Below, one piece after another: positions 2,597 to 16,135 of a stretch of 64,000 bases of DNA. A program made the position numbers and the translations under genes. Position 1 is the first letter of the stretch. Each line of letters starts with the position of its first letter. Below the pieces are notes generated by a model that saw nothing but the letters and a program-made list of their open reading frames with translations, searched no databases and was not told the origin of the DNA. This stretch comes from Deefgea piscis (GTDB lineage: Bacteria > Pseudomonadota > Gammaproteobacteria > Burkholderiales > Chitinibacteraceae), in the NCBI RefSeq assembly GCF_013284055.1, contig NZ_CP054143.1:682001-746000 (forward strand). The letters run 5' to 3'.

Positions 2597-2672
2597 TGGC
2601 TCCTCGACCTGGGCTCGAACCAGGGACACACGGATTAACAGTCCGTTGCTCTACCAACTGAGCTATCGAGGA
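2597..2672 (-). tRNA. tRNA-Asn (GTT)
   Basis: A 76-base cloverleaf: acceptor TCCTCGA pairs with TCGAGGA, D-arm with AGCTCAGTTGGTAGAGC, anticodon stem ACGGA/TCCGT enclosing CTGTTAA (anticodon GTT), T-arm with GGTTCGAGCC, and an encoded CCA. This is the second copy in transcription order. Confidence 0.97.
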
Positions 2673-2732: not shown

Positions 2733-2808
2733 TGGCTCCTCGACCTGGGCTCGAACCAGGGACACACGGATTAACAGTCCGTTGCTCTACCAACTGAGCT
2801 ATCGAGGA
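2733..2808 (-). tRNA. tRNA-Asn (GTT), second identical copy
   Basis: Identical over all 76 bases to the copy at 2597-2672, including the encoded CCA, and separated from it by 60 bases. It is the promoter-proximal copy, so the pair is most likely one transcript processed into two tRNAs. Confidence 0.97.
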
Positions 2809-13192: not shown

Positions 13193-13621
13193 TTAGAGAG
13201 CAAGAGTTTTAGGTTCTTGCGCAGTGTGCGGATGCTCGCCACCGGCATAAACTTTCATTTTCTTGATCATTGCGTAGCCCAATGGGCCTTTTGGTAACAT
13301 GCCTTTAACAGCAAATTCCAACGCACGGCCAGGAAATTTGTTTTGCATTTCAGTGAAGGTACGCTCGTAAATACCGCCTGGGTGACCAGTGTGACGGTAA
13401 TAAATCTTCGCCGTTGCTTTATCGCCAGTAACGCGGATCTTGTCTGCGTTTACCACAACGATGTAGTCGCCGGTATCGACGTGCGGAGTGTATTCAGCTT
13501 TATGTTTGCCACGCAGGCGTTTGGCGATCTCGGCAGCGAGACGGCCCAGCACTAAGTCTGTGGCGTCCACAACGAACCACTCGCGCTTCACCTCGTGCGG
13601 CTTGGCAGAAAAGGTTTTCAT
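13193..13621 (-). CDS. rplM: Large ribosomal subunit protein uL13
   Basis: A 142-residue 50S protein beginning [20 protein letters not shown], with [17 protein letters not shown] and [19 protein letters not shown]. The open frame extends to 13738, but the family start is at 13621 and the promoter at 13661-13690 lies inside the extension, ruling it out. It heads the rplM-rpsI operon. Confidence 0.98.
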
Positions 13622-13660
13622 GACTGCTAGTCCACGTTTTTGAATTTGAGAAAGTCGCGG

Positions 13661-13690
13661 ATTGTAGCGGGTTAAATGCCACTCTGTCAA
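13661..13690 (-). promoter_or_regulatory. Sigma-70 promoter of rplM-rpsI
   Basis: On the reverse strand TTGACA (13690-13685), an 18-base spacer and TACAAT (13666-13661). This is one of the best -35/-10 pairs in the window and places the rplM start site about 33 bases before the ATG. It lies downstream of the terminator at 13722-13755, so that terminator does not belong to rplM. Confidence 0.85.
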
Positions 13691-13721
13691 ATGCATTTGC
13701 AAACAGATTGCAATCCGAGAC

Positions 13722-13816
13722 AAAAAAAACGCAATCAAGGCATGCCTAGATTGCGCGAAATCCTACCAAATAAATGGAGGATGGAGGAGACGACATCGAG
13801 CAAAGCCCAATGTCAT
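13722..13816 (-). ncRNA. Candidate trans-acting small RNA (about 95 nt)
   Basis: A reverse-strand unit with its own promoter (13822-13850) and terminator, lying between the divergent OsmC and rplM genes. From about 13816 the transcript folds as three hairpins: a 5' stem GACAT/ATGTC (13792-13814) with an inner GGGC/GCUC; a middle stem ATCCTCCA with its bulged partner (13760-13782); and a terminator CGCAATC/GATTGCG (13730-13755) followed by eight U (13722-13729). Between the first two stems the linker GUCUCCUCC (13783-13791) is predicted single-stranded and complements Shine-Dalgarno sequences. Hairpin order, U8 tail and a CU-rich seed are typical of Hfq-dependent sRNAs. No ORF with a ribosome site fits; a 17-codon frame starts at the predicted 5' end. 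Inference from sequence only. Confidence 0.6.
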
Positions 13817-13821
13817 CGCCG

Positions 13822-13850
13822 ATTATCACAGAAATTTAGGTGTAAGACAA
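13822..13850 (-). promoter_or_regulatory. Sigma-70 promoter of the candidate sRNA
   Basis: On the reverse strand TTGTCT (13850-13845), a 17-base spacer and GATAAT (13827-13822), preceded by TGT so that the extended -10 form is also met. The predicted start site is near 13816, one or two bases before the first hairpin. Confidence 0.65.
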
Positions 13851-13995
13851 CCAAGTTTTCCGCGCTGCGACCAATGGTTATAGCACCAATCTTGTCGTTC
13901 AATTTACCTGCCGTGCCATCGCATCACCGGCGTTTCCCCGTTAGAATAGCGGCCGATATTCCATCGTTTTGCCTTAATCCAAGGACAAGTGAATT

Positions 13996-14415
13996 ATGAA
14001 AGTACGCATTAAATGGGTCGAAGAAGTGAGTTTTTTGGCGCAGTCCGAATCTGGCCATGCCGTGCTGATGGACGGCCCACCAGAGGGCGGTGGACGTAAC
14101 CTCGGGCCACGCCCGATGGAAATGCTGCTGATGGGCATGGCAGGCTGCTCTAGCTATGATGTCATCCACATCCTTAAAAAAGGCCGTGCGGACGTTAGAG
14201 ACTGCGTACTTGAAGTCGACGCCGAACGCGCAGCAACCGACCCTAAGGTATTCACCAAAATTCATTTACATTTTATTGTGACCGGCAAAGCACTTAAGAC
14301 AGAAGCCGTTGAGCGAGCGATTAAATTATCGGCAGAAAAATACTGCTCTGCCTCGATCATGCTTGGCCAAGTCGTCCCCATTACGCATGATTTCAGCGTG
14401 CTTGAAGCCAATTAA
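13996..14415 (+). CDS. OsmC family protein (peroxide-reducing type)
   Basis: A 139-residue protein of the OsmC/Ohr fold. The two redox cysteines are present, one in MGMAGCSSYDVIHIL (Cys51) and one in AEKYCSASIML, with the GRNLGPRPMEMLLMG turn before the first. Such proteins reduce organic or hydrogen peroxide with thiols; this short YhfA-like branch has no firmly known substrate. AAGGA precedes the ATG. It is divergent from the rplM side and ends in a strong terminator. Confidence 0.85.
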   Translation: MKVRIKWVEEVSFLAQSESGHAVLMDGPPEGGGRNLGPRPMEMLLMGMAGCSSYDVIHILKKGRADVRDCVLEVDAERAATDPKVFTKIHLHFIVTGKALKTEAVERAIKLSAEKYCSASIMLGQVVPITHDFSVLEAN

Positions 14416-14511: not shown

Positions 14512-15315
14512 TTAATGCGCAGCGACTTCTTGACGGCGAAAAATCCAAGCATAAGGCAAACCAATAAATAAAGCCCCACCCACAATATTACCTAGCGTTG
14601 CAGGCAATAAATTATGCAGGAAAAAGTCACTCCAGCTGGCATCCAACCCAAGCAACATTGCGGCAGGGATAAAGAACATATTCGCAATACTATGTTCCAT
14701 GCCCAGCGCAACGAATGCCATGACAGGCAACCAAATACCCATCATGCGCCCGAGAGTGTCTTTCGCTGAATAACCTTGCCAAGCGGCCACACACACCAAA
14801 ATATTCGCCAAAATACCTTTAAAGAAAGTCACGACAAATGGGTTTTCTAATTTGTGATGGGCAACAGAGAGTAAAAATAGCGTTGCAGAATCATTGGGCT
14901 TAAAAATCCCCGTCATATAGGCAAAGGCCCATGCGGTAAATAAAGCACCAATAAAATTACCCAAATAAGAGAGCCCCCAGACTTTTGCCACATCGCGTTT
15001 AGCCAATAAATTACGTTGCAATGGCACCATTTGCGTCGCGCAATTACTGGTAAAAAGATCTACCCCAGTCAACACCACCGCAATAAAGCCCAAAGGGAAA
15101 ACCGCGCCAAATAATAATTTACCCAAGCCAGGATTACTCTGCATCAACTCCGGTGAGCCCCCTGCGACACAAACCGCGAGCAAACCACCAAGGGAAATAA
15201 ACATACCGCCGATAATGGCCATGACTGCCAATCGTGAACAAGGCAACGCTGATTTTTCTAAAGCACTGTGTTCAACATAATCAACAATGGCAGAAGGAGC
15301 TAACATCCCATTCAT
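14512..15315 (-). CDS. Formate/nitrite transporter family channel (FocA/NirC-like)
   Basis: A 267-residue inner-membrane protein with about six transmembrane helices and the FNT patterns GGSPELMQSNPGLGKLLFG, DLFTSNCATQM (slit region), SYLGNFIGAL and FVALGMEHSIANMF with the conserved pore histidine, ending in NLLPATLGNIVGGALFIG. The pentameric family carries formate, nitrite or hydrosulfide; neither pfl nor nir genes are nearby, so the substrate is not resolved. Two Met codons (15315, 15306) could start it. I looked for an FNR box upstream and found no convincing one. Confidence 0.88.
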   Translation of the reverse strand: MNGMLAPSAIVDYVEHSALEKSALPCSRLAVMAIIGGMFISLGGLLAVCVAGGSPELMQSNPGLGKLLFGAVFPLGFIAVVLTGVDLFTSNCATQMVPLQRNLLAKRDVAKVWGLSYLGNFIGALFTAWAFAYMTGIFKPNDSATLFLLSVAHHKLENPFVVTFFKGILANILVCVAAWQGYSAKDTLGRMMGIWLPVMAFVALGMEHSIANMFFIPAAMLLGLDASWSDFFLHNLLPATLGNIVGGALFIGLPYAWIFRRQEVAAH

Positions 15316-15496: not shown

Positions 15497-16135
15497 TTAA
15501 AACCGATAACTGAGTTGCGTCATTAATTTAGAAGTTAACTGCATTATTTGTGGCACAGGCTGTGGCAAAGGAGCCGCCCCCATTTGATCGGCCAGCTCGG
15601 CATGGCTCATTTCATCCAAATACATTTGCGCCACAATGGCACGGCTTTTTTCATCCGACTCAGGCAATTCATTAAGATGACTTTGCAAATGTGCGCCAAC
15701 CTGCCGCTCGGTTTCGGCCAAAAAGCCCAAATTCCATTTATCACCAATCACACCAGCGGCAACGCCCATCGCCAATGAACCGGCATACCACAGAGGATTA
15801 AGCACACTGCGGTGACTACCTAGCTCAGCCAAACGCCGCTGAGTCCAAGCCAAATGCTCGACCTCTTCATCGGCCGCTTGGCGTAATGCTTGCCGTGCAG
15901 CAGGGTCTCTGGCGGTCAAAGCCTGCCCTTGATACAGCGCTTGTGCGCACACTTCGCCGCAGTGATTCACCCGCATCAATCCTGCTGCGTGCGCTTTTTC
16001 TGCGCTACTCATTGCTACATCATCAATTTTGGCATCAGGATGAGCCCGAGCACTCACAGCGGGCGCAGCTAAAGTACGCAACACCGTGTCAAATTCAGTA
16101 ATAAATTGGTCCAAAGAAGGTAATTTCAGCATCAT
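15497..16135 (-). CDS. coq7: Demethoxyubiquinone hydroxylase, Coq7 type
   Basis: Hydroxylates the ring of 2-polyprenyl-3-methyl-6-methoxy-benzoquinone in ubiquinone synthesis. The 212-residue protein has the full di-iron ligand set of Coq7: Glu61 in NHCGEVCAQ, Glu91 and His94 in DEEVEHL, Glu143 in ETERQVG, Glu175 and His178 in DEMSHAE. Betaproteobacteria use this membrane-associated di-iron enzyme where E. coli uses the flavoprotein UbiF. It is a single gene; a GGCGC/GCGCC hairpin without U-tract at 15426-15444 lies downstream and may mark its 3' end. It diverges from the cyclophilin pair. Confidence 0.94.
   Translation of the reverse strand: MMLKLPSLDQFITEFDTVLRTLAAPAVSARAHPDAKIDDVAMSSAEKAHAAGLMRVNHCGEVCAQALYQGQALTARDPAARQALRQAADEEVEHLAWTQRRLAELGSHRSVLNPLWYAGSLAMGVAAGVIGDKWNLGFLAETERQVGAHLQSHLNELPESDEKSRAIVAQMYLDEMSHAELADQMGAAPLPQPVPQIMQLTSKLMTQLSYRF

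What the first reader, a model, noticed from the sequence alone, without database searches (positions are those of the whole stretch)
13722..13816. Unannotated reverse-strand sRNA between rplM and the OsmC gene
Seen: a promoter (TTGTCT-17-GATAAT, with extended -10 TG) at 13822-13850, three consecutive hairpins, and a terminator stem followed by U8. The rplM promoter lies downstream of this terminator, so the terminator belongs to a separate short transcript of about 95 nt. Between divergent genes a reverse-strand terminator has no coding gene to serve. Known: trans-acting Hfq sRNAs commonly have this layout. Inferred: this is an sRNA gene.
Basis: partly seen in the sequence, partly recalled or inferred. 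Interest (0 to 1): 0.75.

Follow-up and report, generated by a model that had tools for sequence, protein, structure and literature searches.

The report
Conserved anti-ribosome-site small RNA gene
The stretch between two divergent genes encodes a conserved small regulatory RNA, an unannotated relative of known betaproteobacterial RNAs that are thought to block translation of nutrient-use genes, and its relatives often carry what looks like a binding site for the regulator of carbon storage.

Summary
It folds far better than shuffles (z -6.6), its 5' hairpin covaries strongly, and a covariance model finds it in 41 of 43 genomes of the family.

It is not a new kind. It is the rplM/osmC-intergenic orthologue of RNAs of Rfam RF02278 ("Betaproteobacteria toxic sRNA": B. 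cenocepacia ncS27, related to B. pertussis S17). The window copy scores 28.3 bits against a cut-off of 50, so Rfam misses it; 3 of 20 syntenic family loci pass. Its three-hairpin, two-anti-SD layout is that of the Neisseria NmsR siblings (RF02877), and the two Rfam families intergrade.

What looks new lies upstream: the published PhaR operator motif (15/17 or better) precedes these sRNAs in 31 of 47 genomes with phaR but 3 of 29 without a detected phaR. This suggests a tie to PHB carbon storage. The window's own site is weak (14/17).

Expression, Hfq dependence and targets are untested here.

The parts
13722..13816 (-). sRNA gene, predicted primary transcript of about 95 nt
13822..13850 (-). 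sRNA promoter, TTGTCT-17-GATAAT, extended -10
   Evidence: TTG and -10 A2/T6 kept in 23 of 23 family loci
13791..13815 (-). stem-loop 1 (5' hairpin); 8 of 11 pairs show changes on both sides in the family
13783..13790 (-). CU-rich single-stranded stretch UCUCCUCC, first anti-Shine-Dalgarno element (seed); CUCCUCC is invariant in 23 family loci
13760..13782 (-). stem-loop 2 containing a second CCUCC (second anti-SD element); in this genus it can pair with either CCUCC copy
13722..13756 (-). stem-loop 3 and U8: intrinsic terminator
13722..13792 (-). region matching Rfam RF02278 full length (28.3 bits, E 8.5e-4 in a 401-base search; gathering score 50); would correspond to the processed short form known for S17 and ncS27 (inferred)
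13857..13873 (-). degenerate PhaR-operator-like site, 14/17 to the published motif, directly upstream of the -35; better in many relatives
13661..13690 (-). separate rplM promoter, TTGACA-18-TACAAT, downstream of the sRNA terminator

Best explanation
13816-13722 (minus strand) is an independently transcribed trans-acting sRNA of about 95 nt, the rplM/osmC-intergenic orthologue of the betaproteobacterial CU-rich sRNAs (RF02278; ncS27/S17 group), with the same layout as the Neisseria NmsR siblings. Most likely mechanism: after transcription from its own promoter, and probably 5' processing between stem-loop 1 and the CU-rich stretch to a form of about 70 nt, the two CCUCC-type elements (one between stem-loops 1 and 2, one in stem-loop 2) pair, probably helped by Hfq, with Shine-Dalgarno regions of many mRNAs for nutrient uptake and catabolism and lower their translation when growth slows. 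Shown here: gene structure, conservation, covariation, homology, synteny, presence of hfq. Inferred from relatives: expression, processing, Hfq action, anti-SD repression, target class.
For: Fold z -6.57. On 23 family loci (21 distinct) 9 of 25 pairs have two-sided changes, 8 of them in the 11 pairs of stem-loop 1; 98.9% of cells paired; 0 of 500 shuffles reach the covariation score. Covariance model R1 finds 41 of 43 family genomes at E<=0.01, 40 of the 41 with one match, and 44 of 80 named loci at E<=0.001 as printed. RF02278 is the only credible Rfam hit in 13600-14000 and its best match in the own genome is this locus (28.3 bits; next 23.1). All 20 syntenic family loci tested match RF02278, 3 of them (L010, L011, L020) over its cut-off. 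rplM(-)/osmC(+) divergence was found in 84 of 135 loci examined, including Paraburkholderia, Ralstonia, Cupriavidus, Thauera and Azoarcus; 72 of those 84 carry the CTCCTCC core (counted from its listing). ncS27 lies on the minus strand about 317 nt before the corrected start of plus-strand BCAL3349 (about 140 codons), matching this arrangement (PMC4603805 passages). hfq is present. Literature passages: S17 is RNase E-processed, Hfq-bound and represses BP2158 (PMC11722255); ncS27 overexpression slows growth (PMC5688073); anti-SD mutations in NmsRA abolished repression of all targets but GltA (PMC5362039).
Against: No RNA data for this organism. The window sequence itself fails the RF02278 gathering score (28.3 against 50), and in the larger 63-kb search its E-value is only 0.13. 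Perfect 9-mer complements of the seed are not enriched in its genome: of 20 sites, 16 lie in pairs 264 bases apart (rRNA operons), 1 is the sRNA itself, and 3 remain, as many as the reversed control pattern gives, so no target set is demonstrated. Stem-loop 2 hardly varies, so covariation says nothing about it. In this genus stem-loop 2 may hide one CCUCC. Two of 43 family genomes (one genus) have no R1 match.
Confidence: 0.85

Rival explanations
1. It is the 5' leader or attenuator of rplM (cis-acting, for example L13 autoregulation), not a separate RNA.
For: Same strand as rplM and about 100 nt upstream; the arrangement is widely kept.
Against: A near-consensus rplM promoter lies between the terminator and rplM in 23 of 23 family loci. 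Of the 30 order-wide RF02278 loci L048-L077, 12 have no rplM within the fetched flank of at most 1.5 kb. L158, with tandem RF02877 copies, has a DsbB-like neighbour as described for NmsR (PMC5362039). 12 of 84 loci keep divergent rplM/osmC without the CTCCTCC core.
Confidence: 0.04
2. It is a 5'-UTR or antisense element of osmC, or just a conserved bidirectional promoter region with an incidental terminator.
For: Divergent promoters commonly share conserved intergenic DNA (general knowledge).
Against: Compensatory changes preserve RNA pairing rather than DNA sequence; the invariant block is the CU-rich RNA element and terminator.
Confidence: 0.03
3. It is a growth-inhibiting ('toxic') RNA with no specific regulatory role, acting by a general anti-SD sequence on ribosome binding.
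For: RF02278 RNAs inhibit E. coli (cited in PMC5688073 and PMC4603805); nmsRB could not be cloned in E. coli (PMC5362039).
Against: S17S was not toxic in exponentially growing E. coli (PMC11722255); NmsRA and S17 repress defined targets; silencing ncS27 speeds growth (PMC5688073).
Confidence: 0.08

Closest known systems
RF02278 Betaproteobacteria toxic sRNA; ncS27 (double-hairpin RNAs) of Burkholderia cenocepacia
   Same: CU-rich UGUCUCCUCCA..CCUCC..GGUGGAUU type core and terminator; minus-strand position before a plus-strand gene of about 140 codons; 92 against about 95 nt; a common upstream motif was reported for three paralogues (PMC5688073; its figure was not seen)
   Different: Window copy has an altered stem-loop 2, scores 28.3 bits (cut-off 50), and only one copy was found in its genome; Burkholderia genomes have three to five paralogues (PMC5688073)
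S17 of Bordetella pertussis
   Same: Related CU-rich region with conserved terminator; S17 lies next to coq7, and a coq7 gene is also near the window locus (15500-16135)
   Different: S17L is 190 nt with a long 5' part, BvgA-dependent, between a glycosyltransferase gene and coq7 (PMC11722255)
NmsRA/NmsRB (NgncR_162/163), RF02877, Neisseria
   Same: Three stem-loops, one anti-SD element between SL1 and SL2 and one in SL2, terminal U-run (PMC5362039)
   Different: Tandem pair between dsbB and lrp; the window's genome has no RF02877 match at E<=1; control by the stringent response reported (PMC5362039)
MmgR of Sinorhizobium meliloti
   Same: An sRNA reported to be negatively controlled by AniA/PhaR (PMC8401924 passage), the control proposed here for the betaproteobacterial group
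   Different: Alphaproteobacterial; relatedness not tested here

Membership tests
RF02278 | Score at or above Rfam's gathering score (50 bits) | tested here: not met
   28.3 bits for the window copy; syntenic orthologues 51.4, 51.0 and 50.2 bits pass, 3 of 20 family loci tested
RF02278 | CU-rich unpaired UGUCUCC, hairpin, terminator hairpin with U-run, in that order | tested here: met
   full-length model alignment 1-64
RF02278 | Expressed as a short RNA; inhibits E. coli when cloned | not tested
   needs bench work
ncS27/rplM-osmC orthologue group | Minus-strand sRNA between divergent rplM and osmC | tested here: met
   BCAL3349 coordinates from PMC4603805; that BCAL3349 is OsmC and BCAL3348 rplM is inferred or recalled, not tested
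RF02877 NmsRb | Score at or above gathering score (52 bits) | tested here: not met
   own genome has no RF02877 match at E<=1; relatives L011 and L016 have 33.1 and 31.3 bits
RF02877 NmsRb | Three stem-loops with two anti-SD elements | tested here: met
   against the description in PMC5362039
Hfq-dependent sRNA | Binding to or dependence on Hfq | not testable with these tools
   hfq gene present; U8 tail present
PhaR regulon | PhaR operator in the promoter region, at most three mismatches to YTKNTGCRNYGCANMAR (criterion of PMC12849132) | tested here: inconclusive
   window site 14/17, two of the mismatches in the core, a score that 17-21% of shuffled stretches also reach; stronger sites in many relatives

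The most novel reading that the evidence does not exclude
Across Betaproteobacteria the CU-rich anti-SD sRNAs (RF02278 and NmsR types, really one superfamily) belong to the PhaR regulon: PhaR sits at or just upstream of the -35 and is titrated away when PHB granules form, so that stored carbon switches on an sRNA that shuts down uptake and catabolism. Lineages that lost phaR lost the operator but kept the sRNA.
Probability: 0.6. Interest if true: 0.65.

Novelty: new member of a known kind. Interest (0 to 1): 0.48.

Why it matters
It places an unannotated locus into a widespread group of metabolic sRNAs and shows that two Rfam families (toxic sRNA and NmsRb) describe intergrading sequences. If the PhaR link holds, one known storage regulator would help explain why relatives such as ncS27 rise in glucose medium, biofilm and starvation (PMC5688073), and would connect PHB metabolism to translational control of nutrient uptake across an order; this is directly testable in a laboratory PHB producer.

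Tried and rejected
Second copies in the own genome: I looked at the next two RF02278 matches (23.1 and 21.5 bits, L029 and L030); they look like ordinary terminators; the other weaker matches were not inspected. R1 finds one copy. At the loose threshold (E<=10) 13 of 14 control genomes also ring; at E<=0.01 one of 14 does (Caulobacter).

Target search by perfect seed complement (GGAGGAGAC): 16 of 20 sites lie in eight pairs 264 bases apart; one such locus (L208) was shown to be 23S rRNA, the other seven pairs are taken to be rRNA operons from the spacing. One site is the sRNA itself. Of the three others, one overlaps the RBS of a GH18/CBM5_12 protein (L224), one that of an SRAP protein (L227), one precedes no long ORF. 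The reversed pattern gave 3 sites, so there is no enrichment. Duplex of the sRNA with the L224 leader: -35.1 kcal/mol, without a control.

The first form of the upstream motif was derived from the same sequences and is circular; the independent published motif was used from then on. One PhaR-locus script picked the wrong strand for three loci and was redone. A genome pattern search for the motif with one mismatch gave 66 sites against 32 for the reversed control in G000, 45 against 31 in G009 and 100 against 96 in G010, so single sites are weak evidence.

Results against the PhaR reading: 3 of 29 genomes without a detected phaR have a site of 15 or more (G144 and G121, assemblies 85% and 87% complete, and the complete G066); family f43 does not follow the rule; 8 of 40 far-upstream stretches also have such sites; at a threshold of 14 the reversed motif gives 6 of 46 and 5 of 27. 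Restricting to genomes at least 90% complete gives 27 of 43 against 1 of 25. The genomes are related; a count by family gives 15 of 16 against 3 of 13, with four families on both sides, and is not a full phylogenetic test. NmsR-type loci: 5 of 16 at 15 or more.

Rows left out before counts: one search tested 20 of 23 family loci; one search used 57 order and named loci with R1 matches plus 23 family loci; one search used 74 such loci, 23 family loci and 16 NmsR-type copies; one search's local control used 69 loci with enough flank (40 for the far-upstream stretch). One search used 73 genomes: 33 already fetched, 21 more without phaR and 19 more with phaR, the latter in the listing order. On checking I found that two genomes without phaR (G121, G184) and one with phaR (G133) had been passed over; they were fetched and added, which moved 30 of 46 against 2 of 27 to 31 of 47 against 3 of 29. 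Matches not printed in the capped list were not examined. phaR absence for genomes not printed was taken from their absence in its list of 136 positives.

Full report
What is there. On the minus strand between rplM (PF00572) and an OsmC-family gene (PF02566) lies a promoter at 13850-13822, then a sequence that folds into three hairpins (-37.9 kcal/mol; z -6.57 against 200 shuffles), the last followed by eight T. A separate near-consensus rplM promoter follows at 13690-13661. The automatic scan by itself would not have proved it: its promoter score is near chance, and it did not list the interrupted terminator.

Conservation. A 351-base query matched 25 of 41 genomes searched. The 23 loci of the window's own family all have rplM and osmC divergent around it. 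In these 23 loci the TTG of the -35 is invariant, the -10 keeps A2 and T6, and the CUCCUCC element and U-run are invariant. RNAalifold on the sequence alignment gives three helices. Counting pairs: 98.9% of cells paired, 9 of 25 pairs with two-sided changes, 8 of these among the 11 pairs of stem-loop 1, covariation score reached by 0 of 500 shuffles and far above slid controls. Stem-loop 2 is too invariant to judge. A model built from this alignment (R1) finds 41 of 43 genomes of the family, 40 of the 41 with one match; the two misses belong to one genus.

Identity. Rfam at its gathering score lists only two tRNAs in the window. With an E-value threshold, 13722-13792 matches RF02278 full length, 28.3 bits, E 8.5e-4 for 401 bases. 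Over the whole genome this is the best match (E 0.0017; next 0.034). All 20 syntenic family loci tested match RF02278; L010 (51.4), L011 (51.0) and L020 (50.2) pass the cut-off of 50, while the window genus is lowest at 28.3-31.9. Across the order, 139 of 200 genomes have an RF02278 match at E<=0.01, 74 over the cut-off. Of the 30 order-wide loci fetched from the best matches, 18 have rplM within the fetched flank. Among 80 named genome loci found through the OsmC protein, 44 have an R1 match at E<=0.001 as printed, including Paraburkholderia, Caballeronia, Ralstonia, Cupriavidus, Pandoraea, Thauera, Azoarcus and Accumulibacter. Over all 135 loci examined, 84 show divergent rplM/osmC; in 12 of these (Janthinobacterium, Rugamonas, Duganella, Herminiimonas, Oxalicibacterium and some metagenome genomes) the intergenic region is 179-327 bases and has no CTCCTCC core.

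Known relatives (read as passages; section 5 of PMC11722255 in full). B. cenocepacia ncS27 is a 92-nt RF02278 RNA, processed to a shorter form; its overexpression slows and its silencing speeds growth (PMC5688073). It lies on the minus strand upstream of plus-strand BCAL3349 (PMC4603805), whose corrected length of about 140 codons fits OsmC. B. pertussis S17 is processed by RNase E to a 67-nt form, binds Hfq and represses a sigma54 activator (PMC11722255). Neisseria NmsRs have three stem-loops with one anti-SD element between SL1 and SL2 and one in SL2; mutating them abolished repression of all targets but GltA (PMC5362039). Sass et al. had already noted structural similarity between the Burkholderia RNAs and NmsRs (PMC5688073). 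Kimelman et al. 2012, the source of the name 'toxic sRNA', was not held and is known here only through citations.

RF02278 and RF02877 intergrade. Five loci (L164, L166, L167, L168, L169) score over the NmsRb cut-off and also match RF02278 at 40.7-48.5 bits in the same place; L172 does the reverse (61.3 and 46.2). R1, built only from the window's family, matches 15 of the 20 loci fetched by RF02877 (L158-L177) at E<=0.01 at the RF02877 place; the other five reach 0.018-0.11. L158 has tandem copies and a DsbB-like neighbour as in Neisseria (DsbB named by eye, not by a search). None of the loci I compared passed both cut-offs. In one search the controls rang in 2 of 14 at E<=1, none over the cut-off.

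Function. Inferred from relatives: the CCUCC elements cover Shine-Dalgarno regions of mRNAs for uptake and catabolism. An hfq gene is present. My only target test, perfect nine-base complements of the seed, showed no enrichment; a GH18 protein with CBM5/12 (L224) has the complement over its RBS and is a candidate only.

The upstream element. The promoters share a site with core TGCRNYGCA. It equals the PhaR operator motif deduced for R. eutropha, YTKNTGCRNYGCANMAR, one site of which lies directly upstream of the -35 of phaP1 (PMC12849132 passages). With this independent motif, sites of 15/17 or better occur upstream of 13 of 23 family and 43 of 74 order loci, against 3-4% of Markov-shuffled stretches and none with the reversed motif. 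Around 69 of the loci, the sRNA upstream stretch has such a site in 41, the stretch between terminator and rplM in 1; a stretch further upstream in 8 of 40. phaR (PF07879) is in all 37 family genomes searched, and 12 of 13 phaR genes read have such sites upstream, two of 16/17 in the window's own genome, against 1 of 13 for the reversed motif, which supports that the motif is PhaR's in this group. In the order sample 136 of 200 genomes have phaR. The sRNA has a site of 15 or more in 31 of 47 genomes with phaR and 3 of 29 without (Fisher 1.3e-6); at 14 or more 41 of 47 and 7 of 29; at 16 or more 11 of 47 and 1 of 29 (which completes). The reversed motif at 15 or more: 1 of 46 and 0 of 27. Genomes at least 90% complete: 27 of 43 and 1 of 25; by family, any site of 15 or more: 15 of 16 against 3 of 13 (p 1.3e-4). 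In f9, which has both kinds, the one genome without phaR scores 12 and the four with it 14-15; in f43 the pattern fails. The window's own site (13873-13857) is only 14/17 with two core mismatches, a score that about a fifth of shuffled stretches reach, and some sister species are weaker still, so control by PhaR is least certain exactly here.

Novelty. In the listings of my searches and the passages I opened I saw no paper linking PhaR to RF02278 or NmsR RNAs; the library holds open-licence papers only. MmgR in S. meliloti is an sRNA under negative control of AniA/PhaR (PMC8401924 passage), so the idea has a precedent. The sRNA itself is a new member of a known kind, with the reservation that the window copy fails Rfam's numeric cut-off.

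Noticed in passing
window 2600-2672 and 2736-2808 (-): Two tRNA genes with identical Rfam scores (68.2 bits), 63 bases apart.
   Followed up: no
G000:C1, eight pairs of sites 264 bases apart (e.g. L208): 23S rRNA (shown for L208) contains GTCTCCTCC, the same nine letters as the sRNA seed, so 16 of 20 genomic complements lie antisense in what look like rRNA operons.
   Followed up: partly
L224:1500-3007: A GH18 protein with CBM5/12 modules (chitinase-like) whose ribosome-binding site is GGAGGAGAC, perfectly complementary to the sRNA seed.
   Followed up: partly
L092, L101, L102, L109: In these Burkholderia/Ralstonia-type genomes the RNase P RNA gene lies just beyond osmC.
   Followed up: no
L106, L113, L114, L129, L157: Janthinobacterium/Rugamonas/Duganella genomes keep divergent rplM/osmC with an intergenic region of 221-225 bases and no CTCCTCC core, suggesting loss or relocation.
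   Followed up: no
G016 and G224 (genus g11): The only two of 43 family genomes without an R1 match; G016 has an RF02877-like match (35.6 bits, C1:78613-78700).
   Followed up: no
window 14515-15315 and 15500-16135 (-): Formate/nitrite transporter and COQ7 genes beyond osmC; coq7 also neighbours S17 in B. pertussis.
   Followed up: partly
L001-L004, stem-loop 2: In these species stem-loop 2 can pair GGUAGGA with either CCUCC copy; the predicted fold uses the second copy, the family consensus the first.
   Followed up: partly
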